Part shown: one piece after another, positions 1,906-57,351 of the stretch
Position numbering within the stretch: the first letter of the stretch is position 1
Layout: each line of letters begins with the position of its first letter
Assembly (NCBI RefSeq): GCF_014876185.1
Contig: NZ_JADALJ010000001.1
Span: forward strand, 1-64,000
Source: Rufibacter sp. LB8
Lineage (GTDB): Bacteria > Bacteroidota > Bacteroidia > Cytophagales > Hymenobacteraceae
DNA length: 64,000 nucleotides
Direction of reading: 5' to 3'
Notes under the pieces: model-generated
The model's database searches: none
What the model was told of the DNA's origin: nothing
What the model saw: only the letters and a program-made list of their open reading frames with translations
Made by a program: the position numbers and the translations under genes

Positions 1906-1945
1906 CCGTTTTCGGGCTCATTTCTGAAAACGAAGCCAAAAATAG
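1906..1945. repeat. CP40 palindrome, copy 1
   Basis: Forty-base palindrome, 15 nt after the Rrf2 stop. The left arm is the canonical CCGTTTTCGGGCTCATTT; the right arm is of the GAAGCCAAAAA subtype, so the stem is imperfect. Confidence 0.85.
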
Positions 1946-2377
1946 CTTTTCCTTTTTCTAGTCATCCTTAGCTTGCGGCGCCACTTTTAACTCAAAAAAT
2001 CATCCTGAGCCTGTAGAAGGGTCTAACGAAGATTCTTTCTGATGGATTAGTTGTGCGTGCAGATAACTTATCCGTTTGCCGTTGTTGTTATCACCAACGA
2101 CCAAGACAGCGGTTCAACCAGTTTTTGTGCACGCAGTTTGCTTTCCTTCCAAACCGCCGTTTCATCCCTTGCCTCACAAGACCACCTTTTTCATAGCCCG
2201 GCTCCGAGCGCTCACGGCCGCGAGGCCCCGCCTTCCCCTCTCGCACTGCCCGTCTTGGCCAAATCTGTTCTTTGTCCTTAGCCCCAGCCATACAAGGCCA
2301 ACCCGCGAGGCGCTCGATGGAAAGCCTGGAAACAGTGCGATGGTTAGGCAGTCTGCGTTTATTAAATTGGATAGATT

Positions 2378-2417
2378 GCGTTTTCAGGCTCTAAATTGGA
2401 AATGGAGGCGAAACTGC
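2378..2417. repeat. CP40 palindrome, copy 2 (degenerate)
   Basis: Starts GCGTTTTCAGGCTCT and ends GGCGAAACTGC. Diverged copy inside island A. Confidence 0.6.
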
Positions 2418-2538
2418 GAAATGCGTGTGCCGGTTGTAGAGACAAGGCACTGCCTTGTCTCTACGGTTGAGGTCACAACAGACGCCTGCTCAAAAGACCT
2501 CGTAGTGTGCGCAGCTCCTACGAGTGTCTCTGCCAATT

Positions 2539-2578
2539 CCGTTTTCGGGCTCTAAAATGGAAATAAAGCCGAAACTGG
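2539..2578. repeat. CP40 palindrome, copy 3
   Basis: Canonical left half CCGTTTTCGGGCTC with an altered centre and the right half AAGCCGAAACTGG. Inside island A. Confidence 0.7.
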
Positions 2579-2948
2579 GTTTCCAACTGTAGAGACCAGG
2601 CACCGCCTTGTCTCCCACGCATGGCTTTCTGCTGCTCCCCACATTCCAAAAAAACTCCCCTCCTGTATTAGGAGGGGTTGGGGGTGGTCCATGTAGTACA
2701 AGATACTTTCCAGCTAAATAGAACACGCTTACTTCCTCACACCTATTCCATTCCTCACAAGAAAATCAACCAAACCAGCGGGCTGTTACCAACTCAATAC
2801 TTTTTTGAAATAAGGATTGCGTTTTCAGTAATTGGTGCTTTTATTTGTCTACTTCATCTATAGAGATGGCCAAGGCAAACGAAAACGGGGAGAAGCCGTT
2901 GGAAGAACTCGGTAGAAAGACATTGTACCACGAAAGAAATTTAAAACT

Positions 2949-3607: not shown

Positions 3608-3643
3608 CAGAAAGGCCATCTCTTTGCAGGGATGGCCTTTCTG
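3608..3643 (+). terminator. Intrinsic terminator after peroxiredoxin
   Basis: Perfect 13-bp stem (CAGAAAGGCCATC / GATGGCCTTTCTG) with a 10-nt loop, followed by GTTTTT. Its last three bases overlap CP40 copy 4. Confidence 0.85.
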
Positions 3644-3680
3644 TTTTTGGCTTCGTTTCTGGAAATGAGCCCGAAAACGC
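3641..3680. repeat. CP40 palindrome, copy 4
   Basis: Overlaps the peroxiredoxin terminator by 3 nt. Left arm CTGTTTTTGGCTTC, right arm GAGCCCGAAAACGC. Confidence 0.8.
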
Positions 3681-4842: not shown

Positions 4843-4882
4843 CCGTTTTGGGCTTCATTTTCAGAAATGAGCCCGAAAACGG
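4843..4882. repeat. CP40 palindrome, copy 5
   Basis: Near-complete palindrome (CCGTTTTGGGCTTC / GAGCCCGAAAACGG) in the gap between the histidine kinase and osmC. The rest of that gap holds nothing recognisable. Confidence 0.85.
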
Positions 4883-4953: not shown

Positions 4954-6168
4954 CTAGTTCACGCTGAACAACTTTTTCTGGATGCTGAAGGAGAACTTGG
5001 AACCCACGCCCGGCTCAGATGAGATTTCAACCTCGCCGCCCAGCTTTTCTACCAGTTTCTTGACCGTAGAGAGGCCAATGCCGGTGCCCACATTCTCAGT
5101 GCGGCTTTTCCGGAAGGTTTGGAACACCCTGAAAATGCGTTTCTGGTGCGTGACCGGAATACCGCGGCCGTTGTCTTCCACGGTGAATTCGTAGCGGTGC
5201 GGGTGTTCCTTGAAATGCACGTCAATAATTCCCTGGCTTTTGTCATTGTACTGAATGGCGTTGCTGAACAGATTCAGGAAAATCTGCTGCAGCGCCGCCC
5301 GCGACGTGGTAATCTGCGGAAGGTTATTGGCGTAGTTGATGGTGATGTTGTCCGGCGGCGAGAGCAAATCCACCACTTCGGTTACCATCTGGCCCAGGTG
5401 AAAACTGCTGCTGAGCTGCGGCGTGAGCTCGGTTACTTTGGAGTATTCCAGCACGCCCGTCACCATCTGGAGCAAACGCTGCGCCGAGTCCTGTACCAGA
5501 TGAATCAAGTGCCGGGCCGTTGGTTCCAGGTTGGCGTGGTGCTCCTGCAGGTTCTGGATCAGGCCGGTCATGTTCTGGAGCGGCGCCTTGAGGTCATGCG
5601 AAATCATGGCGGCATATGCGTCTAGCTGTTCATTGGCCTGCTGCAAGCTCTGGGCCTGGCCCTGCAACTGCTCCACCTGCTGCTGCAAGTCAACTTTTGC
5701 GCAAATCTGTTCGCCTAAGGCCTGCAACGCGGTTAGTTGCGCGGCAAGCAAAGTTTTAGGCCGAGCGTCCATGACCGTTAATATTCCCCAAACCTCACCC
5801 GCGGCAGTTGGCAGTGGCACAGACGCGTAAAAACCAACGGGCGGGAAGCCAGCCAACTTGTTTACTTGTGCCGTGCGCGTATCGGCCTGTATATTTTCCA
5901 CCACCAGCACACGCAAGGGATCCTGTAAACTAAGCCCGAAAAGCGAGTTGGCCAAAGGTGTTTCCACGTTTTGGCCATTGACCAGCGTGGTGCAGTGTTG
6001 GCTTCCTGCGTCTATAAAAGAAACAAACGCGGCCTGGCTCTGGCAAATAGCCGCCGCCATGGCCGTGAACGCCTGAAGATCCTGAACGGGTAGAAATCCC
6101 ACCGCAGCATTAGCCTGAAGCAGGCGAGGACCGGCGGTTTGCTCAGCGTGCGTAATTGGGATTGTCAT
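4954..6168 (-). CDS. GAF-domain sensor histidine kinase, orphan
   Basis: 404 residues without membrane segments. A GAF-like sensor domain spans about residues 20-160 and a short Gln-rich coiled coil about 160-185. The HisKA dimerisation domain has the phospho-acceptor H191 (SHDLKAPLQNM). The HATPase domain shows the N box (NLFSNAIQYND, near 300), G1 (DNGRGIP) and G2 (GTGIGLSTVKKL). It is therefore a cytoplasmic kinase sensing a small molecule or a partner protein. No response regulator gene is adjacent, so its partner lies elsewhere. The start at 6168 gives a plausible polar N-terminus. Confidence 0.92.
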   Translation of the reverse strand: MTIPITHAEQTAGPRLLQANAAVGFLPVQDLQAFTAMAAAICQSQAAFVSFIDAGSQHCTTLVNGQNVETPLANSLFGLSLQDPLRVLVVENIQADTRTAQVNKLAGFPPVGFYASVPLPTAAGEVWGILTVMDARPKTLLAAQLTALQALGEQICAKVDLQQQVEQLQGQAQSLQQANEQLDAYAAMISHDLKAPLQNMTGLIQNLQEHHANLEPTARHLIHLVQDSAQRLLQMVTGVLEYSKVTELTPQLSSSFHLGQMVTEVVDLLSPPDNITINYANNLPQITTSRAALQQIFLNLFSNAIQYNDKSQGIIDVHFKEHPHRYEFTVEDNGRGIPVTHQKRIFRVFQTFRKSRTENVGTGIGLSTVKKLVEKLGGEVEISSEPGVGSKFSFSIQKKLFSVN

Positions 6169-6717
6169 ATTCTTGAGTAAAATGGGGTAAAGCCTATTTA
6201 TGGCGCAAGTTGGGTTTGTGATTCAGCAGGCTGGCTAATCTTTCTGAGGGGGGTAAGGCTATAACTCTAAATCTATACATTTGTTTTCCGCCGCAATTTA
6301 CGGCTTTATCAGGCATGTTTTATAAAGCATACTGCATTTTCATGTACAGACATAAAACTATGTTGTTATAATTATACTTCCTTCTAAATAGCAGCAAATA
6401 TCCCAGAAATTATAATTATGAATTGTTGGAATAATTATAATAATAAAAACTGAAATATATTTTTGACCGAAGTCCGTTTTTGGTCTCATTTCTGGAAACG
6501 AAGCCTAAAACAGAGTTTACGCAAGTGCTGGAAGATGGTCCTGCTTTGCCGGAGAGTTGTATCTTTACCTCTTGCCTCTGTAAACCAGCGAGTGCCCAGA
6601 CCGTTCTCAGCAACGCGCGTGGGCTTACCGCTGCTTTGGAATTTCAAGAAAAAACCAGATGCACAAAGCCGAATTAGAGGTAGAAACAGACCTTTTCAGG
6701 ACCACAGACCAAGACAT
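6169..6717. other. AT-rich divergent intergenic region
   Basis: Between the divergently transcribed histidine kinase and GH3 genes. Bases 6360-6460 are very AT-rich, with repeated ATAATTAT motifs in both orientations, and probably hold the promoters. A CP40 copy follows at 6474-6513. The open frame upstream of 6718 is not thought to be translated. Confidence 0.6.
6474..6513. repeat. CP40 palindrome, copy 6
   Basis: Left arm CCGTTTTTGGTCTCATTT, right arm GAAGCCTAAAACAG. About 200 nt upstream of the GH3-family start. Confidence 0.8.
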
Positions 6718-8214
6718 ATGGGAATAAAAGCAATGTTGAGCAAGCCGTTGGCCTCCTGGGCCAACGTACAGCAGCAGGCCTGGGTGGAACGCCCCAATGA
6801 AACGCAGCAGCAGGTGTTCAGGCAACTCATTAAAAAAGCAGCTACCACGGCATTCGGGAGAGACCATCATTTTCAGGACATACAGAACCACCTGGAGTTT
6901 AAACAGGCCGTGCCCGTGCGTGATTATGAGGCGCTACGCCCGTATTTTGACCGCGTGAAGGAAGGCGAGGCCAACGTGCTGTGGCCGGGCAAACCGCTGT
7001 ATTTCGCCAAAACGTCTGGCACTACCTCGGGCACCAAATACATTCCCATTACGCCAGATTCCATTCCCAACCACATCAACGGCGGCAAGAACGCGCTGCT
7101 CAACTACATTCATGAAACGGGCCGGTCTCAGTTTCTCAACGGTAAACTGATTTTCCTGAGCGGGAGCCCCGTGCTGGAGCAGGTGGCGGGTATTAACACG
7201 GGGCGGCTGTCTGGCATTGTGAACCACCACGTGCCCTCTTATTTGCGCAAAAACCAACTGCCCAGCTATACCACCAACTGCCTGGAAGACTGGGAAACCA
7301 AGCTGGACGCCATTATTAACGAGACCATTGACCAACAGATGACCTTGATTTCGGGCATTCCGCCGTGGGTGCAGATGTACTTTGACAAAATCATGGCGCG
7401 CACCGGCAAGCAAATCAAAGACGTGTTCCCAGACTTCAACCTGTTTGTGTACGGGGGCGTGAACTTCGCGCCATACAAGGCCAAGCTGTTTGAGAGCATC
7501 GGCAGGAAAGTAGACTCTATTGAGACGTTTCCGGCGTCTGAGGGCTTTTTTGCGTACCAGAACGTGCAGGAAGACCCCAGCCTTTTGGTGCTGGCCAACA
7601 GCGGTATTTTCTTTGAGTTTGTGCCCGCCGATGAATTCCACCAACCCAATCCTACCCGCCTGGGCCTGGCCGAAGTGAAAACGGGCGTGAACTACGCGCT
7701 TATCGTTAACAGCAACGCCGGGCTCTGGGGCTATTCCATTGGCGACACCGTCAAGTTTACCTCGCTTTTTCCGCATAAGTTGGTGGTGAGCGGCCGGCTC
7801 AAGCATTTTATCTCGGCGTTTGGCGAGCACGTGATAGCCGAGGAGGTGGAAGGAGCCCTGCAAGACGCCATGGCCGAGTTTCCTGAGGTAGCCGTGACCG
7901 AGTTCACTGTGGCGCCCTTCGTGAGCCAAAATGAGGCGCCGTCTTACCATGAATGGCTGATTGCCTTTGACACGCCGCCGCATGACGCTGAGCGTTTTTC
8001 TAAAGCCCTCAACTGGCACCTGCGCAAGCGTAATTCCTATTATGATGACCTCATTACGGGGAATATTCTGGCCAACCTGAAAGTGACCGCCCTGCCGCCA
8101 GACGCCTTCCAACGTTACATGAAGGGCCTGGGCAAACTAGGCGGCCAGAACAAAGTGCCACGCCTGAGCAATGACCGTACCCTAGCCGATGGATTATTGG
8201 CGGTAATGGGGTAG
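6718..8214 (+). CDS. GH3 auxin-responsive promoter family protein (acyl-adenylate-forming)
   Basis: 498 residues from the ATG at 6718. Plant GH3 enzymes adenylate carboxylic acids and transfer the acyl group to an amino acid; bacterial members have the same fold, but their substrates are unknown. The phosphate-binding motif TSGTTSGTKYIP (near residues 99-110), the ATP-site region YGGVNFAPY and GETFPASEGFFAYQ-like loop support the family. A longer frame extends upstream to 6463, but that part is a translated CP40 copy and non-coding sequence, so I chose 6718 (MGIKAMLSKPLASW). A CP40 copy begins 12 nt after the stop. Confidence 0.88.
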   Translation: MGIKAMLSKPLASWANVQQQAWVERPNETQQQVFRQLIKKAATTAFGRDHHFQDIQNHLEFKQAVPVRDYEALRPYFDRVKEGEANVLWPGKPLYFAKTSGTTSGTKYIPITPDSIPNHINGGKNALLNYIHETGRSQFLNGKLIFLSGSPVLEQVAGINTGRLSGIVNHHVPSYLRKNQLPSYTTNCLEDWETKLDAIINETIDQQMTLISGIPPWVQMYFDKIMARTGKQIKDVFPDFNLFVYGGVNFAPYKAKLFESIGRKVDSIETFPASEGFFAYQNVQEDPSLLVLANSGIFFEFVPADEFHQPNPTRLGLAEVKTGVNYALIVNSNAGLWGYSIGDTVKFTSLFPHKLVVSGRLKHFISAFGEHVIAEEVEGALQDAMAEFPEVAVTEFTVAPFVSQNEAPSYHEWLIAFDTPPHDAERFSKALNWHLRKRNSYYDDLITGNILANLKVTALPPDAFQRYMKGLGKLGGQNKVPRLSNDRTLADGLLAVMG

Positions 8215-8226: not shown

Positions 8227-8266
8227 GCGTTTTGGGGCTCATTTTCAGAAATGAGCCCCAAAACAG
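8227..8266. repeat. CP40 palindrome, copy 7 (compensated variant)
   Basis: Left arm GCGTTTTGGGGCTC pairs with right arm GAGCCCCAAAACAG. Both arms carry the matching change (C to G opposite G to C), so pairing is kept. It lies 12 nt after the GH3-family stop. Confidence 0.88.
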
Positions 8267-8324: not shown

Positions 8325-9605
8325 ATGGAAATTCTCATTGTTGTCACGCTCACCTTATTGAACGGCTTCTTCGCGCTGTCAGAAATCTCCATTATTTCTG
8401 TGCGGAAGGACCGCATGAAGCGGAAGGCCATGGAAGGCAGCAAAAGCGCCCAGACGGTGCTGGACTTGCTGGCCGAGCCCGAGGATTTCCTGTCGGCGGT
8501 GCAGGTGGGCATTACGTTGATTGGGGTGGTGCTGGGGGCGTATGGCGGCGCGGCGCTCTCTGATGACATGCGGACCGTGCTGGTGCAGGTGCCGTTCCTG
8601 GCGCCGTACGCAGATACGCTCTCTATCATTATTGTAGTGGGCCTGATCACCTATTTCTCCATTGTGATAGGCGAACTCATTCCCAAAACCCTGGCCATGG
8701 GCAACAGTGAGCGCATTGCCCTGTTTGTGGCGCCCATCATTAAAGCCTTCACTAAAGCCACGTTGCCGCTGGTCAAACTGCTTTCTATCTCCACCAACCT
8801 GGTCATGAAACTGCTGCGCGTGAAAGTGGCCGAAGAGGAGAAAATGTCTGAGGAAGAACTTCGGCAGATCATTAAAACCGCCGGCAAGCAGGGCATTTTG
8901 GCCAAAGAGGAGACAGACCTGCACCAGAACATCTTCCATTATTCTGAGCAGCGGGCCAAGCACCTCAAAACCCACCGCATAGACGTGGAGTGGGTGAGCC
9001 TGCATGAGACCATGGAAGAAATAAAGGAGAAAATGCGCCTGAGCGCCCATTCCAAGTTTCCGGTGTATGACAAACGCCAGGACCAGGTGGTGGGCGTGCT
9101 GCACTCCAAAGACTTCTATGAGAACCTGCTCACCGACAAACTCCCGCTCCAGGGCCTGCTCAAGAAACCCATTTTTGTGCCTGAGACCATGTTTGCCAGC
9201 GCCGTGCTCAACTTGTTCAAAAACCATAAGCAGTACCTGGGCATTGTGGTAGATGAATTTGGGTCTGTGGAAGGCATTGTCACGCTCCATGACATTCTGG
9301 AAGCCATTGTGGGCGACATTCCGGACCTGGACGAGATACTGGAGAACACCTTTTTGGTAAGGGAAGACAAGTCCATATTGGTGAGCGGCAGCATGCCCAT
9401 CAGAGACCTTAACCGCAAGCTGAAGCGGGAGTTCATCAAGAAGGACACGTCTGACTTTGAGACCCTGGCCGGCTTTGTGAGCCATTACCTCAACCGCCTC
9501 CCCGCCACCGGCGAAAAGTTTGTGTACAACAACTTTGAGATTGAAGTCATAGACCTGGACGGAAGCAAGATTGACAAACTGCTCCTCAAGGAAATCAAGG
9601 AATAG
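8325..9605 (+). CDS. CNNM/CorC-type membrane protein (DUF21, CBS pair, CorC_HlyC)
   Basis: 426 residues. The N-terminal DUF21 domain (about 1-185) has three to four hydrophobic helices and the motif GITLIGVVLGAYGG. Two CBS domains (about 200-330) and a C-terminal CorC_HlyC domain (about 345-425) follow. Proteins of this build (CNNM, MpfA, PaeA/YtfL, YfjD) are linked to Mg2+ or cation/polyamine export; the older name hemolysin is misleading. The substrate here cannot be told. The ATG at 8325 is clear. A CP40 copy begins 7 nt after the stop. Confidence 0.92.
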   Translation: MEILIVVTLTLLNGFFALSEISIISVRKDRMKRKAMEGSKSAQTVLDLLAEPEDFLSAVQVGITLIGVVLGAYGGAALSDDMRTVLVQVPFLAPYADTLSIIIVVGLITYFSIVIGELIPKTLAMGNSERIALFVAPIIKAFTKATLPLVKLLSISTNLVMKLLRVKVAEEEKMSEEELRQIIKTAGKQGILAKEETDLHQNIFHYSEQRAKHLKTHRIDVEWVSLHETMEEIKEKMRLSAHSKFPVYDKRQDQVVGVLHSKDFYENLLTDKLPLQGLLKKPIFVPETMFASAVLNLFKNHKQYLGIVVDEFGSVEGIVTLHDILEAIVGDIPDLDEILENTFLVREDKSILVSGSMPIRDLNRKLKREFIKKDTSDFETLAGFVSHYLNRLPATGEKFVYNNFEIEVIDLDGSKIDKLLLKEIKE

Positions 9606-9612
9606 GATCACT

Positions 9613-9653
9613 CCGTTTTCGGGCTCATTTCTGGAAATGAGGGCAAAAACCGG
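9613..9653. repeat. CP40 palindrome, copy 8
   Basis: Seven nt after the CNNM stop. Canonical left arm; right arm GAGGGCAAAAACCGG with one extra base. Confidence 0.82.
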
Positions 9654-13312: not shown

Positions 13313-13817
13313 GAAGAAGTAACTGTGGGTTAATTGTAGATATTAGAATAGCTCCCTTTTCATCCTGAGCAGCACTCTTCGCCACTTCCTGCTGTCATCC
13401 TGAGCTTGTCGAAGGATCTAACGAAGCGTGATGCTTTGATTAAATTTCACTTTCTCCCCGCCGTCTTCGCCGTTGTTGGTGTTCTCACTGAAAACCTGAA
13501 TTGCGTTCCCAGTTGCTATTTCTGTGCACGCAATTTGCCTTCCTTCCAAATTTCTGTTTGCTCCTGAGTTCTACAAGACGGCCTTTTCCATAGCTGGGCT
13601 CCGAGCGCTCACGGCCGCGATGCCCCGCCTTCCCCTCTCGCGCTGTACCAGCTTCCTGACGCCTTCGGCACCCGCCTGGCGGCGACGGAACCTGCTTAGG
13701 CGCTCGATGGAAAGGCTGGAAAAAGGTGCATGAGGCAGTCTGCGTTTTGGGCATCAGCAGTGCCGCCTGCTCAAAAGACCTCACAGGTTTTGGAAACCTG
13801 TGAGGTCTGCGCCAATT

Positions 13818-14302: not shown

Positions 14303-14343
14303 CCTGTTTTCGGCTCCACTTCCTAAACAGAGCCCGAAAACGG
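14303..14343. repeat. CP40 palindrome, copy 11
   Basis: Directly touches the last base of the porE stop codon (14344). Right arm AGCCCGAAAACGG. Confidence 0.85.
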
Positions 14344-19142: not shown

Positions 19143-19181
19143 CCGTTTTCGGGCTCAATTTTCAAAACGCATGCAAAAACG
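19143..19181. repeat. CP40 palindrome, copy 12, spanning the porQ start codon
   Basis: Left arm CCGTTTTCGGGCTCAATT, right arm AAAACGCATGCAAAAACG. The porQ ATG (19171-19173) and the codons for MQK lie in the right arm. Confidence 0.75.
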
Positions 19182-20217
19182 CATCTTCCTGTTGGGGCTG
19201 TTGGTAATGGCCGCGGTTCAAGTGGTCCAGGCCCAGATGGGAGGGCGGTACGCGTTCCGGTTTCTGGAGGTCCCCACACATGCGCGGCAGGCGGCCCTGG
19301 GCGGCGTGAACATCTCGTCGGGTTTGGAGGAAGTGAACGCGGTGAGCGCCAACCCCGCGCTCATGCAAGGCAAAACCAACAATCTGCTGTCGTTCACCTA
19401 CCTGAATTACCTGGCAGACGTTGGCCAGAGCAACTTCCAGTACGTATTTGAAAGCCCCAAACTTGGCCGGAATGCTGTTGGCGTGCAATACCTGAACTAT
19501 GGCGACTTCACCCAGACCAATGCCGCGGGCGAGGAGGAAGGTACGTTTAATGTGCGGGATTATGCCATCACGCTGTCGCATGCCGCTACCATTGAAACGT
19601 TCACGCTGGGCGCCACCGCCAAAGTAGCCGTCTCCAGCATTGCAGGCGATCAGGCCGTGGCCACCGCCGTTGATTTGGGCGGTACCTTCAAACACCCCGA
19701 ACAGGATTTTATAGTGGGTCTGGCCATTAAAAACCTGGGTGTGATGGTGAAGCCCTACGGCAATGGCGAGCGCGAAGACTTGCCGCTGGACATTCAATTA
19801 GGAGCCAGCTACAAACCTGAGCACGCGCCTTTCCGGCTGTCGCTCACGGCGCATAACCTGCACCGCTTTGATATTGTCTACCTAGACCCTGCCAAGAAGG
19901 GCGCCATCAACGAGAACAACGAGGAGGTGAAGGAAGAGAAAACCTTTACAGATAAGCTGGCGCGCCACTTTGTGGTGGGCGGCGAATTTCTGCTGGGGCA
20001 AGGCTTCAACCTGCGCGCCGGCTACAACCATTTGCGCCGTAAAGAACTGGTGGTGGAGAACGTGGGCGGCATGGCGGGTTTCTCCTTTGGGGCGTCCATC
20101 AAAATCAGCGCCCTTCGGTTTGACTACACGTACGCCAATTTCCACGTGGCCGGGGCCAGCAACTACATCACTTTAACCGCTGATTTGAACCGTTTCCTGA
20201 AGAAGAAATTGGACTGA
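19171..20217 (+). CDS. porQ: Type IX secretion system protein PorQ
   Basis: 348 residues with a signal peptide (MQKRIFLLGLLVMAAVQVVQ, cleaved near AQA-QMGG), an outer-membrane beta-barrel pattern and the family hallmark near the N-terminus: GRYAFRFLEVPTHARQAALG, then NPALMQG. PorQ belongs to the PorV/PorQ (FadL-like) group that works with PorU/PorZ at the outer-membrane end of type IX secretion. The start codon lies within a CP40 palindrome. No PorU or PorZ gene is adjacent; T9SS genes are scattered in this phylum. Confidence 0.85.
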   Translation: MQKRIFLLGLLVMAAVQVVQAQMGGRYAFRFLEVPTHARQAALGGVNISSGLEEVNAVSANPALMQGKTNNLLSFTYLNYLADVGQSNFQYVFESPKLGRNAVGVQYLNYGDFTQTNAAGEEEGTFNVRDYAITLSHAATIETFTLGATAKVAVSSIAGDQAVATAVDLGGTFKHPEQDFIVGLAIKNLGVMVKPYGNGEREDLPLDIQLGASYKPEHAPFRLSLTAHNLHRFDIVYLDPAKKGAINENNEEVKEEKTFTDKLARHFVVGGEFLLGQGFNLRAGYNHLRRKELVVENVGGMAGFSFGASIKISALRFDYTYANFHVAGASNYITLTADLNRFLKKKLD

Positions 20218-20290: not shown

Positions 20291-20330
20291 CCGTTTTTGG
20301 CTTCATTTCTGAAAATGAGGCCAAAAACGG
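20291..20330. repeat. CP40 palindrome, copy 13 (second subtype, compensated)
   Basis: CCGTTTTTGGCTTCATTT left and GAGGCCAAAAACGG right. Both arms carry the T/A version of the stem. A TTTGTCATCCTGAAAGGATC repeat lies just upstream (20231-20277). Confidence 0.87.
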
Positions 20331-22143: not shown

Positions 22144-22183
22144 CCGTTTTTGGCTTCATTTCTGGAAATGAGCCCGAAAACGG
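22144..22183. repeat. CP40 palindrome, copy 14
   Basis: Abuts the preceding terminator with no gap. Left arm of the TTTTTGGC subtype, right arm GAGCCCGAAAACGG. Confidence 0.85.
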
Positions 22184-22886: not shown

Positions 22887-23615
22887 ATGCGCTACTATAT
22901 CATTACCGGAACCAGCCGCGGGCTAGGCAAGGCCTTGGCCGAGGCCCTGCTCAAAGACAGCCAGAACTTTGTCATTGGCGTGTCGCGCAATTGTACCCTC
23001 ACACATGACCGTTACCGCCACCAGCCTTTGGATTTCTCAGACATTGCCGGGGTGGAGCACAACCTGCACAAGGTCTTCGGCGAATTCCCAGACGCCACCC
23101 AATTGGTGCTGGTCAACAACGCCGGCGTGCTGGGCGAAATCGGGTACATGGGCCAAAGCAAGAACGAGCATTTTGAGTTTGTCTTTGACGTGAATGTGAT
23201 TGTGCCGGCCATGTTCATGAACCTGTTCCTGCAAAGCTACCAGCACCGCTCCGGCATAGAGAAACTGGTGGTGAACATCAGTTCTGGCGCCGGGCAGAAG
23301 GCCAAAGACGGTTGGGCCGCGTACTGCGCCTCCAAAGCCGCGCTGGACATGCTTTCCCAAACCGCCCAAATTGAACAGGACAAACTGGGTACCGGCGTAA
23401 AAGTGTTCTCCTTGTCGCCGGGTTTGATTGACACTGAGATGCAGGAACAAATCAGAGACGCAGACCCCGCCCAGTTCAGCAGCGTGCAGCAGTTCAGAGA
23501 CTTCAAAACCCAAGGTGATCTGGTGACTCCTGAAAAAGTGGCGGCCAAGGTTTTGCAGCTGATGGAGAACCCTAAGTTGGCCCAGGCGGTGGTGTGTTCG
23601 GTTCGGGATTTCTAG
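22887..23615 (+). CDS. Short-chain dehydrogenase/reductase
   Basis: 242 residues. Classical SDR: nucleotide-binding TGTSRGLGKALA (residues 8-19), NNAGVLG, catalytic Ser in VNISSGAGQ, and the Tyr/Lys pair in AYCASKAALDM. The family branch near sepiapterin/benzil reductases uses NADPH to reduce carbonyls; the substrate is unknown. The stop codon's last base is the first base of CP40 copy 15. Confidence 0.93.
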   Translation: MRYYIITGTSRGLGKALAEALLKDSQNFVIGVSRNCTLTHDRYRHQPLDFSDIAGVEHNLHKVFGEFPDATQLVLVNNAGVLGEIGYMGQSKNEHFEFVFDVNVIVPAMFMNLFLQSYQHRSGIEKLVVNISSGAGQKAKDGWAAYCASKAALDMLSQTAQIEQDKLGTGVKVFSLSPGLIDTEMQEQIRDADPAQFSSVQQFRDFKTQGDLVTPEKVAAKVLQLMENPKLAQAVVCSVRDF

Positions 23616-23654
23616 CGTTTTCGGGCTCATTTCCAGAAATGAAGCCTAAAACGG
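23615..23654. repeat. CP40 palindrome, copy 15
   Basis: Begins at the last base of the SDR stop codon. Left arm GCGTTTTCGGGCTCATTT, right arm GAAGCCTAAAACGG. Confidence 0.85.
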
Positions 23655-27883: not shown

Positions 27884-27923
27884 CCGTTTTTGGCCTCATT
27901 TCCAGAAACGAAGCCAAAAACAG
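27884..27923. repeat. CP40 palindrome, copy 17
   Basis: CCGTTTTTGGCCTCATTT left, GAAGCCAAAAACAGG right. It sits 17 nt from the prfB terminator. Confidence 0.85.
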
Positions 27924-29149: not shown

Positions 29150-29189
29150 GCGTTTTTGGCTCCGTTTCTGGAAATGAGCCCGAAAACGA
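29150..29189. repeat. CP40 palindrome, copy 18
   Basis: Seven nt downstream (minus strand) of the stop codon of the gene at 29197-29952. GCGTTTTTGGCTCCGTTT left, GAGCCCGAAAACGA right. Confidence 0.83.
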
Positions 29190-36595: not shown

Positions 36596-36635
36596 CCGTT
36601 TTTGGGCTCGTTTTCAGAAATGAGGGCTAAAACGG
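36596..36635. repeat. CP40 palindrome, copy 19
   Basis: Between plsC and the Nudix gene, 36 nt past the Nudix stop. CCGTTTTTGGGCTCGTTT left, GAGGGCTAAAACGG right. Confidence 0.83.
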
Positions 36636-37929: not shown

Positions 37930-37969
37930 CCGTTTTCAGCCTCATTTCCAAAAACGAAGCCAAAAACGG
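37930..37969. repeat. CP40 palindrome, copy 21
   Basis: Eight nt past the stop of the gene at 37978-38574. CCGTTTTCAGCCTCATTT left, GAAGCCAAAAACGG right. Confidence 0.83.
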
Positions 37970-38641: not shown

Positions 38642-38682
38642 CCGTTTTCAGGCTCATTTCCAAAAAACGAGGCCAAAAACGG
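38642..38682. repeat. CP40 palindrome, copy 22
   Basis: Three nt past the bshA stop. CCGTTTTCAGGCTCATTT left, GAGGCCAAAAACGG right, with one extra base at the centre. Confidence 0.83.
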
Positions 38683-42802: not shown

Positions 42803-43171
42803 TTCGCAACGCGTAATTTAATTTGAATAACGTTTTCATAGGGCTAATTTCGCAGAGGATTTCAAGCCCGCGCGCCGGTGGCGTTTTCCCGTTCATTTAT
42901 AAAACAGAGCCCAAAAACGCCTTTCTATGAAAGAGGAATTTGAGCCGCTGAGGTTCTTTGTTTTTCAAGCGTCATCGGCTAAAAGCCAAGAAGTTGCCGC
43001 GTGAGAGCCAAAGAAGCCGAAGGAGGAAAACAGCAAACCAACCGGCCCTGTTTGAACTTGTAATATTACTGAAATTTGCCTTCCCGCACAAAGAAATCTG
43101 ACCTACAGGCATTATGCCTCGTTGGAGGAAGGGCGGCAAGGAACGAATAAAAACTACGCAGAAGAGAGAGT
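42803..43171. other. Divergent intergenic region between the GH3 fusion and mutL
   Basis: Contains CP40 copy 23 at 42881-42920. The remainder shows no gene or clear promoter match; both flanking genes must be driven from here. Confidence 0.6.
42881..42920. repeat. CP40 palindrome, copy 23 (diverged)
   Basis: GCGTTTTCCCGTTCATTT left, CAGAGCCCAAAAACGC right. Confidence 0.7.
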
Positions 43172-45062: not shown

Positions 45063-45102
45063 GCGTTTTCGGGCTCGTTTTCAGAAATGAAGGCAAAAAC
45101 AG
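45063..45102. repeat. CP40 palindrome, copy 24
   Basis: Four nt after the mutL stop. GCGTTTTCGGGCTCGTTT left, GAAGGCAAAAACAG right. Confidence 0.83.
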
Positions 45103-45244: not shown

Positions 45245-45284
45245 GCGTTTTTGGCTCCGTTTCTGGAAATGAAGCCAAAAACAG
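45245..45284. repeat. CP40 palindrome, copy 25 (second subtype)
   Basis: GCGTTTTTGGCTCCGTTT left, GAAGCCAAAAACAG right. Confidence 0.85.
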
Positions 45285-47443: not shown

Positions 47444-47483
47444 CCGTTTTCGGCCTCATTTCTGGAAATGAGCCCGAAAACAG
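47444..47483. repeat. CP40 palindrome, copy 26
   Basis: One nt past the SPFH stop codon. CCGTTTTCGGCCTCATTT left, GAGCCCGAAAACAG right. Confidence 0.85.
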
Positions 47484-49153: not shown

Positions 49154-49193
49154 GCGTTTTCGGGCTCAATTCCAGAAATGAGCCCGAAAACAG
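49154..49193. repeat. CP40 palindrome, copy 27
   Basis: GCGTTTTCGGGCTCAATT left, GAGCCCGAAAACAGG right. Seven nt from the mdh terminator. Confidence 0.86.
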
Positions 49194-49253: not shown

Positions 49254-50192
49254 TTACGCGTTGGCGGGCATGTTGTCTAACACATCCATCACTTCGCGCA
49301 CGGCTTTCTCAGAGGCAGTTAACAAGGCCATTTCGTCTTCGTTCAGTTGTAATTCAATTACTTTCTCCACGCCGTTTTTGCCCAGGATTACCGGTACGCC
49401 AAGGTAGGTGCCGGTGATGCCATATTCGCCTTCCAGCTTGATACATACCGGGAACACGCGCTTCTGGTCACGCACAATGGCTTCTACCATTTGCGCAGCG
49501 GCAGAACCTGGCGCATACCAAGCCGACGTGCCCATCAGTTTCACCAGTTCTCCACCACCGTTCTTGGTGCGGTCTACAATGGCGTCCAATTTAGCAGGAT
49601 CAATCAGTTCGGTTACCGGAATACCGCCTACGGTGGTGTAGCGTGGTAATGGAACCATGGTATCGCCGTGGCCACCCATTAATACTGCTTGAATATCTTT
49701 GGGAGACACATTCAATTCCTCGGCCAGGAAAGCGCGGTAACGGGCGGTGTCTAAGATGCCGGCCATGCCCATTACTTTGGTGCGGGGCAGTTTAGAGGTA
49801 ATGTGCGCGGCGTAGGTCATCACGTCCAGCGGGTTAGACACCACAATGATGATGGCCTCCGGGCTGTGCTTGATCACATTCTCAGTCACAGAACGAACAA
49901 TACCGGCGTTGGTGCTGATCAAATCATCGCGGGTCATGCCGGGCTTGCGCGGTAAACCGGAAGTGATCACCACCACATCTGAGTTCGCGGTGCGGGTGTA
50001 ATCATTGGTCACGCCCACGGTGCGGGTGTCATACAGGTTGATGGGTGATTTCTGCCAGATATCCAAGGCCTTGCCTTCGGCGAACCCTTCTTTGATATCC
50101 ACTAACACTACTTCATTGGCGATTTCGCGGTAAGCCAGCACATCAGCGCACGTGGCGCCTACGTTACCCGCTCCAACAACGGTTACTTTCAT
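49254..50192 (-). CDS. mdh: Malate dehydrogenase (LDH-like, MdhA type III)
   Basis: 312 residues. Oxidises malate to oxaloacetate with NAD in the citric acid cycle. NAD-binding GAGNVGATCA (residues 7-16), substrate Arg in GLPRKPGMTRDD, and catalytic His in MGGHGDTMVPLPRY mark the LDH-like malate dehydrogenase group usual in Bacteroidota. Single gene with its own terminator. Confidence 0.97.
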   Translation of the reverse strand: MKVTVVGAGNVGATCADVLAYREIANEVVLVDIKEGFAEGKALDIWQKSPINLYDTRTVGVTNDYTRTANSDVVVITSGLPRKPGMTRDDLISTNAGIVRSVTENVIKHSPEAIIIVVSNPLDVMTYAAHITSKLPRTKVMGMAGILDTARYRAFLAEELNVSPKDIQAVLMGGHGDTMVPLPRYTTVGGIPVTELIDPAKLDAIVDRTKNGGGELVKLMGTSAWYAPGSAAAQMVEAIVRDQKRVFPVCIKLEGEYGITGTYLGVPVILGKNGVEKVIELQLNEDEMALLTASEKAVREVMDVLDNMPANA

Positions 50193-50302: not shown

Positions 50303-50342
50303 CCGTTTTTGGGCCCAATTCTGGAAATGGGGCTGAAAACGG
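50303..50342. repeat. CP40 palindrome, copy 28
   Basis: CCGTTTTTGGGCCCAATT left, GGGGCTGAAAACGG right. Confidence 0.8.
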
Positions 50343-50711: not shown

Positions 50712-50751
50712 GCGTTTTGGGCTTCATTTCCAAAATGGAGGCCGAAAACAG
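50712..50751. repeat. CP40 palindrome, copy 29
   Basis: Ten nt past the tilS stop. GCGTTTTGGGCTTCATTT left, GAGGCCGAAAACAG right. Confidence 0.84.
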
Positions 50752-50761: not shown

Positions 50762-52093
50762 TCAATTCCGCTTCACGCTGATTTCAAGAACTTCCTGCGT
50801 AGCTTCTGTGACTTTGAAACGGTTGTCCAGCTGTTGGCCAATGACCCAGGCCAGGGAAGCGTCTGAGACCAAAACCCAAACCTCTGCCTTTAGATTGGCG
50901 GGTACTTTCTTGTCAATCAGCAGGTCGCTTACTTTTTTCTTGCCGTTCATGCCTAGCGGGATAAACCAGTCGCCTTGCTTCCAGGGGCGGAGTTTGAGGG
51001 GCAGTTTCACCAAGTTAGCATCTAAGGCGGTGGTGAATTTGTCGCGCGGGACTTTGTAGTTTTCTGGTTTGGGTTTGCGGGTGAGCGTGGCGGTATACGG
51101 GCCAAACGTGATGTCAGTGGCTTCCTCCGGAATAAGTATGCTCCCGAAAACCTCCAGGGCTTTGCGCGTGATCACCAGTTCTTCGCGGTCTTTCACCAGC
51201 ACGTGCGTAGGCGAATTAAACGTGGTGCCGGAGAGTGCGTCAAAGGCTGCGGCAATTTCCTGGGTCTGCACATAGTTGAAGGTGAAGGATTTCAGGAATT
51301 CGTGGAGTATGACCAAGGGCGCGGGGCATTCCAGCAGCGGGGCAATACGCAAGTAGGTGGCGCCGTTCTCTTCACGTTGCGTTTTTGCCTTCATTTCCAG
51401 AAACGAGGCCAAAAACACAGCCTCGGCCCCTTGCAGTCTTTCTAACGTTTGCGCGAAGGTTTCCTCTAAATTGGGGTTCAGGGTCTTGAGCTGCGGAATG
51501 ACCTCGTGGCGGACCAGATTGCGGGCATATTTGGTGCTTTCGTTGCTGGAATCTTCCCGCCAGGCCAACCGTTTGGCTACTAGCCAGTCATAGAGGTCGT
51601 CTTTGGTGAGGCCCAGCAGGGGTCTGATTAAATGACCGTTTTTGGGAAGAATACCGTGCAAACCCGCCAGGCCGGTGCCGCGGGTCAGGTTCAGTAAAAC
51701 GGTTTCCAGCGCGTCTGACTGGTGGTGCGCCGTGGCGATTACGTCATAGCCCAACTGCTTTCGCATTTGCTCAAACCACTGGTAACGCAGGGCGCGGGCC
51801 GCCATCTGAATGGAAATGCCCTCCTGTTGCGCGAACGCCTCGGTCTGGAACTGCTCGCTGTAAAAAGGCGCGTCATGCGATTTGGCCAGTTTGCGCACGA
51901 AGAGTTCATCGGCGTCAGATTCTTCGCCCCGCAACCCGAAGTTGCAGTGCAGCACGGCAAAGGGCAGTTTGAGGCGGTGTAAAAGGTCGGTGAGCACCAC
52001 GGAATCCAGTCCGCCGCTCACGGCCGCCAGTATTTTAGTTTCTGGGGTGGCCAGCTGATGGCGCTCTATATAGTGTTGTACTTTCTGCAGCAT
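50762..52093 (-). CDS. tilS: tRNA(Ile)-lysidine synthetase TilS carrying a CP40-encoded insert
   Basis: 443 residues from the ATG at 52093 (MLQKVQHYIERHQ); the extra 18 codons to 52147 look spurious. TilS modifies C34 of tRNA(Ile2) with lysine so that it reads AUA. The PP-loop AVSGGLDSVVL (residues 24-34) and the RALRYQWFEQ motif are intact, and the C-terminal TilS substrate domains are present (LKLRPWKQGDWFIPLGMNG). Residues about 226-238 (VFLASFLEMKAKTQ region) are encoded by an in-frame CP40 palindrome lying between GAEA and REENGATYLRI. Confidence 0.94.
   Translation of the reverse strand: MLQKVQHYIERHQLATPETKILAAVSGGLDSVVLTDLLHRLKLPFAVLHCNFGLRGEESDADELFVRKLAKSHDAPFYSEQFQTEAFAQQEGISIQMAARALRYQWFEQMRKQLGYDVIATAHHQSDALETVLLNLTRGTGLAGLHGILPKNGHLIRPLLGLTKDDLYDWLVAKRLAWREDSSNESTKYARNLVRHEVIPQLKTLNPNLEETFAQTLERLQGAEAVFLASFLEMKAKTQREENGATYLRIAPLLECPAPLVILHEFLKSFTFNYVQTQEIAAAFDALSGTTFNSPTHVLVKDREELVITRKALEVFGSILIPEEATDITFGPYTATLTRKPKPENYKVPRDKFTTALDANLVKLPLKLRPWKQGDWFIPLGMNGKKKVSDLLIDKKVPANLKAEVWVLVSDASLAWVIGQQLDNRFKVTEATQEVLEISVKRN
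51379..51418. repeat. CP40 palindrome, copy 30, inside tilS
   Basis: GCGTTTTTGCCTTCATTT left, GAGGCCAAAAACAC right. In the tilS frame (minus strand) it reads VFLASFLEMKAKT without a stop. Confidence 0.88.
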
Positions 52094-55193: not shown

Positions 55194-55205
55194 TTAGCAT
55201 TCTGA

Positions 55206-55766
55206 ATGCTTCGGCATAAGAAAATAATCTTGGGCGTGTGTGGCAGCATTGCGGCGTACAAAGCGGCTTTGTTGGTGCGCCTGCTCATAAAAGCAGAAGC
55301 AGAAGTGCAGGTGATCCTGACCACTTCTGCTTCTGCTTTTATAACCCCGGTCACGCTGGCCACGCTCTCCAAACGCCCCGTGCTCACCCAGTTCGTGCGC
55401 GAGGACCAGTCTGGTCTGTGGCACAACCACGTGGAGTTGGGTTTGTGGGCCGATGCCCTGGTGGTGGCCCCGGCCAGCGCCAACACGGTAGGCAAGTTCG
55501 CGCGCGGGCTCTGTGATAACCTGTTGACGGCTACGTACCTTTCGGCGCGCTGCCCGGTGTTTGTGGCCCCGGCCATGGACCTGGACATGTACCAGCACCC
55601 GGCCGTGCAGGAGAATTTCAGGCTGTTACAGTCTTACGGAAACCACCTGATTGACGCCGGGCACGGGGAATTGGCCAGTGGTCTGGTAGGGCAGGGGCGC
55701 CTGGCCGAGCCTGAAGAAATAGTCGCCATTTTACAGCAGCATTTTACCCCTCACACCCTTGTTTAA
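55206..55766 (+). CDS. coaC: Phosphopantothenoylcysteine decarboxylase part of CoaBC (split frame)
   Basis: 186 residues, HFCD flavoprotein domain: GVCGSIAAYKAALLVRLL, ALVVAPASANTVGKFARGL with the FMN-contacting SAN, and APAMDLDMYQHPAV (PAMN-like motif, here PAMD). It decarboxylates 4'-phosphopantothenoylcysteine in CoA synthesis. CoaBC is normally one ~400-residue protein; here the frame closes at TAA 55764-55766, where the ligase domain continues in another frame. This is either a true frameshift/sequence error or a split gene. Confidence 0.88.
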   Translation: MLRHKKIILGVCGSIAAYKAALLVRLLIKAEAEVQVILTTSASAFITPVTLATLSKRPVLTQFVREDQSGLWHNHVELGLWADALVVAPASANTVGKFARGLCDNLLTATYLSARCPVFVAPAMDLDMYQHPAVQENFRLLQSYGNHLIDAGHGELASGLVGQGRLAEPEEIVAILQQHFTPHTLV

Positions 55767-56418
55767 CGGCAAACACGTTCTCATCACGGCCGGGCCCACG
55801 TATGAACCATTGGACCCTGTGCGGTTTATTGGCAACCACAGCACCGGTAAAATGGGCTTCGCGCTGGCGCAATCTTTGGCTGAGCAGGGAGCGCAGGTGC
55901 AACTGGTGGCAGGGCCCACGGCCTTAAAACTGGAGCACCCCAACGTACAGGTCACCGCCGTGATGACCGCCGATGAGATGTTTGCCGCCTGCCAGCAGTT
56001 TGCCGCGCAGGCTGACCTCTGGATCTTCGCCGCCGCCGTGGCCGACTACAAACCCAAAGACACCGCCACCTCCAAAATAAAAAAAAACGATGCCACCTTT
56101 ACCATTGAGCTGGTGAAGAACGTTGATATAGCAGCTACCCTGGGCAAAACCAAAAAGGCGGGGCAGTTTGCCGTAGGCTTCGCGCTGGAAACCGACCAGG
56201 AACTGGAGAACGCCAAAGGCAAACTGCTCAAGAAAAACCTGAACATGGTAGTGCTTAACTCCTTGAGAGACGCCGGCGCCGGGTTCAAGCATGACACCAA
56301 CAAAATTACCATTGTCACCCACAAGGCGGTAGAAGTTTTTGACCTTAAACCCAAGGCGGCGGTGGCGCAGGATATTCTGGAATCTATAAAAACTGAATGG
56401 GCATGTACGCAAGATTGA
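55759..56418 (+). CDS. coaB: Phosphopantothenate-cysteine ligase part of CoaBC (split frame)
   Basis: 219 residues. Ligase domain with HVLITAGPTYEPLDPVRFIG, NHSTGKMGFALAQ and the active-site region AAAVADYKPKDT, followed by the Lys motif KKNDATFTIELVKNVD. It joins phosphopantothenate and cysteine with CTP. The only nearby start is a TTG at 55759, overlapping the upstream frame by 8 nt; the first ATG (55851) would delete the nucleotide-binding start. One skipped base near 55752-55758 would fuse it to the decarboxylase part in the normal order. Confidence 0.88.
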   Translation: MFNGKHVLITAGPTYEPLDPVRFIGNHSTGKMGFALAQSLAEQGAQVQLVAGPTALKLEHPNVQVTAVMTADEMFAACQQFAAQADLWIFAAAVADYKPKDTATSKIKKNDATFTIELVKNVDIAATLGKTKKAGQFAVGFALETDQELENAKGKLLKKNLNMVVLNSLRDAGAGFKHDTNKITIVTHKAVEVFDLKPKAAVAQDILESIKTEWACTQD

Positions 56419-57308
56419 TAAAGGCCGTGCTTTTCTGCCTGCTGTTCTCGTTGGGCGCACAGGCGCAGGAACTGCAGACCGAAGTGGTGGTGAACAGTGA
56501 TCAGGTGCAGGCCACCGACCGGCAGATTTTCCAGCAGATGCAAAACGCCATGGCCGAAATCATGAACAACACCCGCTGGACTAATGACTCGTACCGGCCC
56601 GAAGAGCGCATACGGTGCAAGTTGTTCATCACGGTGCGCGCCATGCCGCGGGTGGGGTATTTTGAGGCCAACGCCCAGATTGTGGCCAGTCGGCCCACGT
56701 ACGGCAGCGGCTATGAAACCACGGTTTTCTCGTTTGTAGACACCAAGTTTGAGTTTGAGTACAACCCGGCGCAGCCGCTGCAATACGCGCCCAACACTTA
56801 CACCAGCAACTTAACCGCGCTGCTTTCTTTTTACGCCTACACCATCATCGGAATGGACCACGACAGCTTTGCCAGGTTAGGTGGGGCAGGGGCGTATTCT
56901 GAGGCCAACAACATCATCAACCTGGTTTCTTCAGGCGGGGGCGGGCCCGGTTGGAGCGCCAACGAAGACAACCGCAACCGCTATTGGTTGTTGAACAATT
57001 TGATTGACCCGCAGTTTGAGCCGTTCAGGGCCGCCCTGTACACCTACCACCGCCAGGGCCTGGACCTTCTCACCCAAGACCGCGAACGCGCCCGCCAGAA
57101 TATTCTGGAGTCTCTCAAGAACATTCAGCAGATGGTGCGGTTGCGCCCCGGCACAGCGGTGATGCGGGCATTTTTTGAGGCCAAGGCCAGCGAACTTTCC
57201 AGCACGTTCTCCACCGCCACGCCCGCCCAAAAACAGCAAGCCTACGAACTGCTCACCCAAATGGACCCCACCAACCGGCCAAAATACGATGTGCTGCTAC
57301 AGCGTTAA
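56397..57308 (+). CDS. porD: Type IX secretion protein PorD-like (DUF4835)
   Basis: 303 residues with a signal peptide (MGMYARLIKAVLFCLLFSLG, cleaved near AQA). The DUF4835 pattern is clear: QELQTEVVVNSDQVQ, YGSGYETTVFSF, DDKFEF-like VDTKFEFEYNP and the helical C-terminus QNILESLKNIQQMVRLRPG. PorD is reported to be needed for type IX secretion. It overlaps the coaB end by 22 nt (or 16 nt from the second ATG) and closes the bamD operon. CP40 copy 31 begins 3 nt after the stop. Confidence 0.85.
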   Translation: MGMYARLIKAVLFCLLFSLGAQAQELQTEVVVNSDQVQATDRQIFQQMQNAMAEIMNNTRWTNDSYRPEERIRCKLFITVRAMPRVGYFEANAQIVASRPTYGSGYETTVFSFVDTKFEFEYNPAQPLQYAPNTYTSNLTALLSFYAYTIIGMDHDSFARLGGAGAYSEANNIINLVSSGGGGPGWSANEDNRNRYWLLNNLIDPQFEPFRAALYTYHRQGLDLLTQDRERARQNILESLKNIQQMVRLRPGTAVMRAFFEAKASELSSTFSTATPAQKQQAYELLTQMDPTNRPKYDVLLQR

Positions 57309-57311
57309 TTT

Positions 57312-57351
57312 CCGTTTTCGGCTTCATTTCCAGAAATGAGCCCGAAAACGG
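57312..57351. repeat. CP40 palindrome, copy 31
   Basis: Three nt after the porD stop. CCGTTTTCGGCTTCATTT left, GAGCCCGAAAACGG right. Confidence 0.87.

What the first reader, a model, noticed from the sequence alone, without database searches (positions are those of the whole stretch)
1906..57351. CP40 copies cluster immediately downstream of stop codons
Distance from stop codon to CP40 on the 3' side: porE 0, SDR overlapping by 1, SPFH 1, bshA 3, porD 3, mutL 4, CNNM 7, nuclease-like gene 7, the secreted protein at 37978 8, tilS 10, GH3-family gene 12, Rrf2 15. Twelve of 36 lie within 15 nt. This suggests insertion preference for, or selection at, 3' untranslated regions: an mRNA 3'-end hairpin for stability or termination. 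The stem ends in GAAAACGG, so there is no U-tract, unlike an intrinsic terminator.
Basis: partly seen in the sequence, partly recalled or inferred. Interest (0 to 1): 0.85.

Follow-up and report, generated by a model that had tools for sequence, protein, structure and literature searches.

The report
Palindromic repeat marking bacterial gene ends
A 40-letter palindrome that occurs about 1,740 times in this bacterium really does sit just behind genes, often stays behind the same genes in related species although each species spells it in its own way, and looks more like a DNA boundary mark at gene ends than a simple RNA hairpin.

Summary
In 1.264 Mb (window plus 60 evenly spaced stretches) there are 506 copies. 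152 stop codons lie within 15 nt of a copy, against 71.6 (sd 6.5) for random placement in the same gaps; start codons 6 against 36. A pattern counts 1,739 copies in the genome. All 16 sampled genomes of the genus (by neighbours, Rufibacter) have it, with species-specific spelling.

An RNA 3'-UTR hairpin as general function is not supported: both strands are equally stable, G-U and A-C mismatches are about equal, inner half-sites vary independently, and U-tract terminators stand beside copies. A role at transcription-unit ends is supported. Compact convergent gene pairs carry a copy in 24 of 37 cases, compact tandem pairs in 18 of 359; there the palindrome is nearly perfect and, by one of two detectors, replaces U-tract hairpins (1 of 26 against 10 of 27). 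Many copies persist at the same gene end in other species after the flanks have saturated. Best reading: a REP-like boundary element read as DNA by an unknown dimer.

The parts
1906..1945 (.).
3641..3680 (.).
4843..4882 (.). CP40 copy, 71 nt from the stop of 4954-6060 (-)
6474..6513 (.). CP40 copy in a divergent gap
8227..8266 (.). CP40 copy, 12 nt after the stop of the GH3-family gene 6733-8214 (+)
9613..9652 (.). CP40 copy, 7 nt after the stop of the CNNM gene 8325-9605 (+)
14304..14343 (.).
19143..19182 (.). CP40 copy, weak, overlapping the predicted start of 19171-20217
20291..20330 (.). CP40 copy, 73 nt after the stop of 19171-20217 (+)
22144..22183 (.). CP40 copy, tandem gap
23615..23654 (.). 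CP40 copy, overlaps the stop codon of the SDR gene 22887-23615 (+) by 1 nt
27884..27923 (.). CP40 copy, 79 nt from the stop of 28003-28857 (-)
29150..29189 (.). CP40 copy, 7 nt from the end of ORF 29197-29952 (-)
36596..36635 (.). CP40 copy, 36 nt from the stop of 36672-37187 (-); copies at 38-40 nt in 3 of 6 other loci scored
37297..37336 (.). CP40 copy, 23 nt from the stop of a short, weakly scoring ORF 37360-37590 (-)
37930..37969 (.). CP40 copy, 8 nt from the stop of 37978-38574 (-)
38642..38682 (.).
42881..42920 (.). CP40 copy, weak, divergent gap
45063..45102 (.). CP40 copy, 4 nt after the stop of mutL 43172-45058 (+); 1 of 8 other loci (R. roseus) has one there, at 9 nt
45245..45284 (.). 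CP40 copy in the same gap behind mutL
47444..47483 (.). CP40 copy, 1 nt from the stop of the SPFH gene 47485-48336 (-); 3 of 7 other loci have a differently spelled copy at exactly 1 nt, 4 have none found
49154..49193 (.). CP40 copy, 60 nt from the stop of 49254-50192 (-)
50303..50342 (.). CP40 copy, tandem gap
50712..50751 (.). CP40 copy, 10 nt from the stop of tilS 50762-52093 (-)
51379..51418 (.). CP40 copy inside the tilS coding sequence; similar copies with like flanks in six other Rufibacter loci
57312..57351 (.).
57620..57659 (.). CP40 copy in the same gap
59679..59718 (.). CP40 copy in a convergent gap, 58 nt from the stop of 59777-60148 (-)
61785..61824 (.). CP40 copy in a convergent gap
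61910..61949 (.). CP40 copy in the same convergent gap
63711..63750 (.). CP40 copy near the window end

Best explanation
CP40 is a genus-wide, REP-like family of dyad-symmetric DNA sites kept at the ends of transcription units, above all between convergent genes. Two half-sites of about 19 bp with fixed spacing are probably read as double-stranded DNA by an unidentified dimeric protein (inferred). Bound there, it would mark or block the end of transcription from either side, standing in for a bidirectional terminator where two genes converge with no room for one; hairpin pairing of the outer arms may add to this at compact junctions. Species spellings would have drifted together with the reader protein. 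Shown: position, nearly fixed length, near-absence of single halves, independence of the inner half-sites in this genome, retention of many copies at the same gene ends, species-wide change of spelling in place. Shown by one of two detectors only: replacement of U-tract hairpins at compact convergent junctions. Inferred: the protein, the DNA rather than RNA form, the effect on transcription.
For: Gap-independent occupancy of convergent junctions: residual gap under 30 nt 10 of 14 in this genome and 14 of 23 in other Rufibacter, against 5 of 138 and 13 of 221 for tandem pairs (pooled Fisher p 4e-18). Fixed length: 504 of 506 copies are 40 nt (copies with larger indels could be missed). Half-site matches: 906 within called copies, 7 outside. 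Paired columns of 19: 15.21 observed, 15.15 (sd 0.053) after shuffling arms. No clear strand preference. Retention: of 321 orthologous gene ends, 93 have a copy in both species, 51 and 37 in one, 140 in none (odds ratio 6.9, p 2e-15); 26 of 93 agree within 3 nt against 10.6 permuted (maximum 19). In 37 pairs within 5 nt, flanks are 0.300 identical (random 0.258), invariant columns 0.948 (random same-species copies 0.941). In the 26, 45 of 52 arms carry this genome's CAT/CGT spelling and 0 of 52 ortholog arms do. Some genes enter these pairs more than once, with different species. U-tract hairpins in convergent gaps of 20-80 nt: 1 of 26 with CP40, 10 of 27 without (p 0.005), 8 of 17 in Pontibacter and Hymenobacter.
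Against: No reader protein was found or looked for. Outer columns 1-8 covary (z 4.9 convergent under 120 nt, 6.7 tandem, 3.6 divergent in this genome); copies with identical arms exceed expectation here (44 against 13.9) and in G005 (13 against 1.4), G007 (7 against 0.7) and G013 (11 against 1.2); identical copies too (337 pairs against 141). In G005 overall pairing exceeds shuffled arms (14.97 against 14.25, sd 0.197); in G006 hardly (14.42 against 14.09, sd 0.207). The substitution of U-tract hairpins rests on my second detector and gap classes: the first (gaps 20-110 nt) showed no difference, 17 of 66 with CP40, 8 of 42 without, 8 of 33 in sister genera; I changed it because it missed tracts that pair within the stem, after seeing that output. 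In gaps of 81-150 nt CP40 and U-tract hairpins coexist (31 of 77; 9 of 22 in sister genera). 44 copies lie in divergent gaps. Counts rest on a home-made gene caller.
Confidence: 0.42

Rival explanations
1. A selfish or tame mobile repeat of the REP/REPIN type: copies inserted in the genus ancestor and later, survive where they harm least (behind genes, away from promoters), and are kept uniform by continued copying.
For: Found in one genus with 71-1,742 copies per genome; other REP families show the same stop-proximal, convergent-rich placement (PMC3733652); excess of identical copies and identical arms; a copy inside tilS; fewer copies in low-GC stretches (rho with GC 0.45 over 60 stretches) and on the second contig (3 copies per 17 gaps of at least 40 nt in 40 kb, against 514 per 765); barring 80 nt before starts explains much of the tandem excess; 2 of 6 Y1_Tnp genes of this genome have a copy on both sides, 120-420 nt away (not tested against chance); REPIN-bearing E. 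coli genomes without RAYT exist (PMC8049555).
Against: G007 has 1,060 copies and no Y1_Tnp match; Y1_Tnp is present in 15 of 16 genomes of the genus and in 18 of 21 sampled genomes of other genera of the family that lack CP40 or nearly so. Few broken or single halves. Many gene ends are kept after flanks saturate, with the spelling changed in place and outer columns still showing ancestry (0.689 against 0.612, sd 0.024). Compact convergent junctions are filled far beyond a per-base rate (37.9 per 1000 slots under 30 nt, 10.1 at 30-60, about 4 at 120-500).
Confidence: 0.31
2. An mRNA 3'-end hairpin: transcripts end downstream (Rho is encoded) and exonucleases trim them back to CP40, which shields the 3' end, or the hairpin near the stop tunes translation as for E. 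coli REPs.
For: Stable as RNA, mean -18 kcal/mol; better pairing at compact convergent junctions (1.30 mismatches, n 10, against about 4, p 6e-4; 2.36, n 14, against about 4.4 in others, p 0.001); pairing continues outside the consensus in convergent and stop-distant tandem copies, not clearly in divergent ones; slightly more tandem copies with more G-U than A-C (121 against 93); REPs within 15 nt of a stop reduce translation in E. coli (reported in PMC12306157).
Against: Sense and antisense equally stable (p 0.41 and 0.52); G-U share of G-U plus A-C 0.51-0.53 here and 0.48-0.52 in others for all tandem copies. Of the 18 subset tests there, two reached p<0.05: inner arms of stop-proximal copies here (0.60, p 0.012; reversed in the others, 0.43) and flank bases of stop-proximal copies in the others (0.65, p 0.025; 0.64, p 0.07 here). 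Inner columns do not covary in this genome; stop-proximal tandem copies show weak flank pairing (partly because the stop codon fixes those bases); in 72 of 383 gene ends the terminator precedes CP40.
Confidence: 0.18
3. A self-DNA watermark like the DNA uptake sequences of Neisseriaceae, with species dialects.
For: Very high copy number and species-specific spelling, fewer copies in low-GC stretches, slightly regular spacing (5-kb variance/mean 0.726 against 0.929, sd 0.070; weaker at 2.5 and 10 kb), 0 and 1 exact matches of two dialect patterns in viral contigs.
Against: A paired 40-bp palindrome, hardly ever a single half, whereas uptake sequences are short words that also occur singly (partly recalled); strong bias to convergent junctions; no receptor known; competence was not tested here.
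Confidence: 0.08

Closest known systems
GTAG- and CGTC-tagged REPs (PMC3733652; passages and one section read)
   Same: Small palindromes in high copy number, intergenic, mostly between convergent or co-directional genes, many under 20 bp from gene 3' ends, some inside genes
   Different: No GTAG or CGTC tag (within 8 nt of an end in 5.9% and 4.2% of 506 copies against 9.7% and 6.8% at random places); both ends alike
E. coli REPs within 15 nt of stop codons (Liang et al. 2015, not seen; as reported in PMC12306157, one section read)
   Same: Stop-proximal palindromes behind genes
   Different: That effect is on translation through RNA; CP40 shows no clear strand signature
REPINs of Pseudomonas and E. 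coli (PMC8049555; passages read)
   Same: Long-lived intragenomic sequence population with a consensus; can be present without RAYT
   Different: REPINs are two REPs with a spacer, with single REPs as decaying remnants; CP40 is one 40-bp dyad with hardly any remnants
DNA uptake sequence dialects of Neisseriaceae (PMC3630211; passages read)
   Same: Species-specific dialects, thousands of copies, inverted pairs linked to terminators
   Different: Short words; CP40 is a 40-bp dyad
Bidirectional intrinsic terminators (examples printed for Pontibacter and Hymenobacter)
   Same: Occupy compact convergent junctions
   Different: CP40 has T-runs at the 5' foot and A-runs at the 3' foot on both strands, the reverse of a terminator

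Membership tests
GTAG/CGTC REP | tetranucleotide tag at one end | tested here: not met
   Tag frequencies near the ends are below those at random places
GTAG/CGTC REP | 20-40 bp palindrome, more than 100 copies, intergenic | tested here: met
   1,739 copies; 13 of 506 in genes
GTAG/CGTC REP | close to gene 3' ends, convergent and co-directional gaps | tested here: met
REP/REPIN | linked RAYT (Y1_Tnp) transposase | tested here: inconclusive
   Six Y1_Tnp matches in this genome; 2 of 6 have a copy on both sides (L001, L002), one has a copy at its start (L006), the paired genes of L003 have none between them, not tested against chance; G007 has copies but no Y1_Tnp match
REPIN | two REPs with a spacer; single REPs as remnants | tested here: not met
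   one 40-bp dyad; 7 half-sites outside copies against 906 inside
Intrinsic terminator | G+C-rich hairpin followed by a U-tract | tested here: not met
   only a mild T excess after the element; 1 of 26 compact CP40 junctions has a U-tract hairpin by the second detector
DNA uptake sequence | short word that also occurs singly (partly recalled) | tested here: not met
DNA uptake sequence | species dialects | tested here: met
DNA uptake sequence | receptor and uptake bias | not testable with these tools
   needs transformation assays
Rfam RNA families | match above a curated threshold | tested here: not met
   0 matches in the window

The most novel reading that the evidence does not exclude
Rufibacter has replaced many bidirectional intrinsic terminators by a protein-bound palindromic roadblock: a genome-wide set of about 1,740 dimer sites that ends transcription from both sides, with a reader protein and its sites that switch dialect together from species to species.
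Probability: 0.2. Interest if true: 0.88.

Novelty: new variant of a known kind. Interest (0 to 1): 0.7.

Why it matters
Stop-proximal palindromes are known in many bacteria and their role is still argued over: mobile debris, RNA hairpins, or DNA sites. This genus offers a natural experiment. A good share of copies sits at the same gene ends in several species after the surrounding DNA has become unrecognisable, yet each species has rewritten them in its own spelling, and the inner arms vary independently. That helps to separate selection on the site from copying, and DNA from RNA, and it points to a missing reader protein that can be fished for. If the roadblock reading holds, a bacterial genus ends many transcripts without U-tract terminators.

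Tried and rejected
Intrinsic terminator: rejected, no U-tract and ordinary terminator-like hairpins beside it. CP40 as a general substitute for terminators: rejected, because U-tract hairpins are no rarer behind genes with CP40 (this genome: convergent 0.409 with, 0.274 without; tandem 0.242 and 0.210). Substitution appears only at compact convergent junctions and only with the second of two detectors: (gaps 20-110 nt) gave 17 of 66 with CP40, 8 of 42 without, 8 of 33 in sister genera; (gaps 20-80) gave 1 of 26, 10 of 27 and 8 of 17. RAYT-driven repeat: not required, but the link is inconclusive. Gene conversion or copying of whole elements as the only cause of uniform spelling: weakened, not excluded. 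Exclusion from operons: in gaps of 0-30 nt the tandem density (2.2-3.4 per 1000 slots) is near that of longer gaps, so I claim nothing from it alone. Regular spacing is weak. Pooled covariation of the other species mixes dialects and is inflated; I rely on this genome's values. The search in other genera used patterns tied to known dialects, so more distant relatives could be missed: 7 of 134 same-family genomes outside the genus had 1-4 matches, and 3 of those 134 had one match to the backward control. Two literature searches found no description of this family among the listings; the library is partial. Sister-genus stretches could not be fetched.
Full report
What was checked. All twelve distances hold, and a thirteenth was missed (3641-3680, 9 nt). 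I found 31 copies in the window at E<1e-3 and five weaker ones, 36 in all. The consensus is TTT CCGTTTTCGGGCTCATTTC YR GAAATGAGCCCGAAAACGG AAA.

Genome-wide test. A profile found 506 copies in 1.264 Mb; the reversed sequence gave nothing below E=2. A pattern search counts 1,739 in the genome, control 0. 470 of 506 copies have a called gene on both sides. Stop codons within 15 nt: 152 against 71.6 (sd 6.5) when each copy is placed at random in its own gap; start codons: 6 against 36. Convergent gaps alone show 62 against 41.0 (sd 4.0). In tandem gaps, 90 of 297 against 30.4, or 70.9 (sd 5.1) if 80 nt before the start is barred. So promoter avoidance explains much of the tandem excess, not the convergent one. 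The most frequent distance is 3 nt, at which the TTT that extends the palindrome touches the stop codon. In other Rufibacter samples the excess is clear in three of six genomes and in the pool.

Who has it. A relaxed pattern finds 71-1,742 copies in 16 of 16 genomes of the genus and 1-4 in 7 of 134 sampled genomes of five other genera of the family. Species differ in spelling: this genome CGTTTTCGGGCTCATTTC, G005 CGTTTAGGGGCTGTTTTTC, G006 TGTTTTAGGCCTGTTTTC. Positions 14-16 read CAT or CGT in 883 of 1,064 half-sites here and most often GTT in the other samples.

Same place, different spelling. For 321 orthologous gene ends that could be scored (pairs of this genome with any other; a gene may enter more than once), 93 carry a copy in both species, 51 and 37 in one only, 140 in none (odds ratio 6.9, p 2e-15); distances to the stop correlate (rho 0.67), and 26 of 93 agree within 3 nt against 10.6 permuted (maximum 19). 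In 37 pairs within 5 nt, flanking bases are near random identity (0.300 against 0.258), invariant columns 0.948 (0.941 for random copies of the other species). Outer variable columns keep some ancestry (0.689 against 0.612, sd 0.024), inner ones none (0.292 against 0.286). In the 26 pairs, 45 of 52 arms have this genome's spelling and none of 52 ortholog arms has. The SPFH gene shows it best: a copy 1 nt behind the stop in this genome and three others, spelled in four ways; in four further loci none was found there. So many elements are old, kept in place, and rewritten together; but 88 of the 181 gene ends with a copy in either species lack it in the other, so there is turnover as well.

Is it an RNA hairpin? 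Four tests speak against it as the general function. Arms: 15.21 of 19 pairs match, 15.15 after shuffling the arms among copies; in this genome inner columns 9-19 do not covary in any gap class. Strand: in tandem gaps G-U and A-C mismatches are close (386 and 339; near stops 166 and 188; subsets, where 2 of 18 reach p<0.05, one of them reversed in the other species). Energy: sense -18.16, antisense -17.99 kcal/mol, p 0.41; near stops p 0.52. Order: in 383 gene ends a U-tract hairpin lies before the copy in 72, after it in 54, overlapping it in 20. Against this, outer columns 1-8 do covary, copies with identical arms are in excess (44 against 13.9; also in G005, G007, G013), overall pairing in G005 exceeds shuffled arms, and pairing runs on outside the consensus in convergent and stop-distant tandem copies. 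Stop-proximal copies are not better paired than others.

What the junctions say. Occupancy of convergent junctions hardly depends on gap length, while tandem gaps fill with length. With the element subtracted, gaps under 30 nt carry a copy in 10 of 14 convergent and 5 of 138 tandem cases here, 14 of 23 and 13 of 221 in other Rufibacter. In these compact convergent junctions, often stop-CP40-stop and little else, arms are better paired (1.30 mismatches against about 4, p 6e-4; others 2.36, p 0.001). Whether CP40 replaces U-tract hairpins there depends on the detector. My first (gaps 20-110 nt) gave no difference (17 of 66 with CP40, 8 of 42 without, 8 of 33 in Pontibacter and Hymenobacter). It missed tracts that pair within the stem, visible in the printed sister-genus examples, so I wrote a second: in gaps of 20-80 nt, 1 of 26 CP40 junctions has a U-tract hairpin, 10 of 27 Rufibacter junctions without CP40 (p 0.005), 8 of 17 in the sister genera; in gaps of 81-150 nt 31 of 77, 9 of 20 and 9 of 22. 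CP40 has its T-run on the 5' side and its A-run on the 3' side, the reverse of a terminator.

Interpretation. Nearly fixed length (504 of 506), hardly any single halves (7 against 906), half-sites that vary independently in their inner part, indifference to strand, and a shared change of spelling fit a DNA site read by a dimer. Junction data place its benefit at ends of transcription units. The reader protein and the effect are inferred. The paired outer foot and the excess of identical arms and copies are the strongest points against a pure protein-site reading; they fit a mobile or hairpin-based element, or repair by template switching within a site (a mechanism I recall, not tested).

Mobile rival. 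Y1_Tnp is present in 15 of 16 genomes of the genus and in 18 of 21 sampled genomes of the family's other genera, and G007, with 1,060 copies, has none. Of the six Y1_Tnp genes here two have CP40 on both sides, which in so dense a family may be chance and was not tested. GTAG and CGTC tags are not enriched.

Literature seen. PMC12306157: abstract, passages, one section. PMC3733652: passages and one section. PMC3630211 and PMC8049555: passages. Others only as search listings. Rho is encoded.

Noticed in passing
2127-2687, 13524-14251, 24812-25357: A second, larger repeat of about 0.5-0.7 kb in three copies, each with nested palindromes (TGTAGAGACAAGGCA...TGCCTTGTCTCTA, CTCCCCTCC...GGAGGGG) and weak CP40-like pieces; the palindrome begins with a GTAG motif.
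   Followed up: no
51379-51418: A CP40 copy inside the tilS coding sequence; six other Rufibacter loci hold a differently spelled copy with like flanks, so it may have become protein-coding before the genus split. Same place inferred from flanks, not from a protein alignment.
   Followed up: partly
44015-44054: A weak CP40-like match inside mutL (E 0.3), seen at the same place of the locus in six of eight other Rufibacter loci with 3-4 mismatches; an old intragenic copy or a chance coding match.
   Followed up: partly
20231-20277, 22045-22091, 45322-45368: Another intergenic repeat, TTTGTCATCCTGAAAGGATCTTGTGGGCGAAC, close to CP40 copies in these gaps.
   Followed up: no
21898-21953: Heptamer tandem repeat GAATTAG directly behind the gene 20489-21898.
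   Followed up: no
L003 596-1791: Two related Y1_Tnp (RAYT-like) genes facing each other with no CP40 between them.
   Followed up: partly
L055 (chromosome 3460001-3480000), L042, L054: Low-GC stretches with 0-2 copies in 8-12 gaps of at least 40 nt; possibly acquired DNA without the element.
   Followed up: partly
L231 1275-1310: One viral contig (IMG/VR) carries a copy in the spelling common to several other Rufibacter.
   Followed up: no
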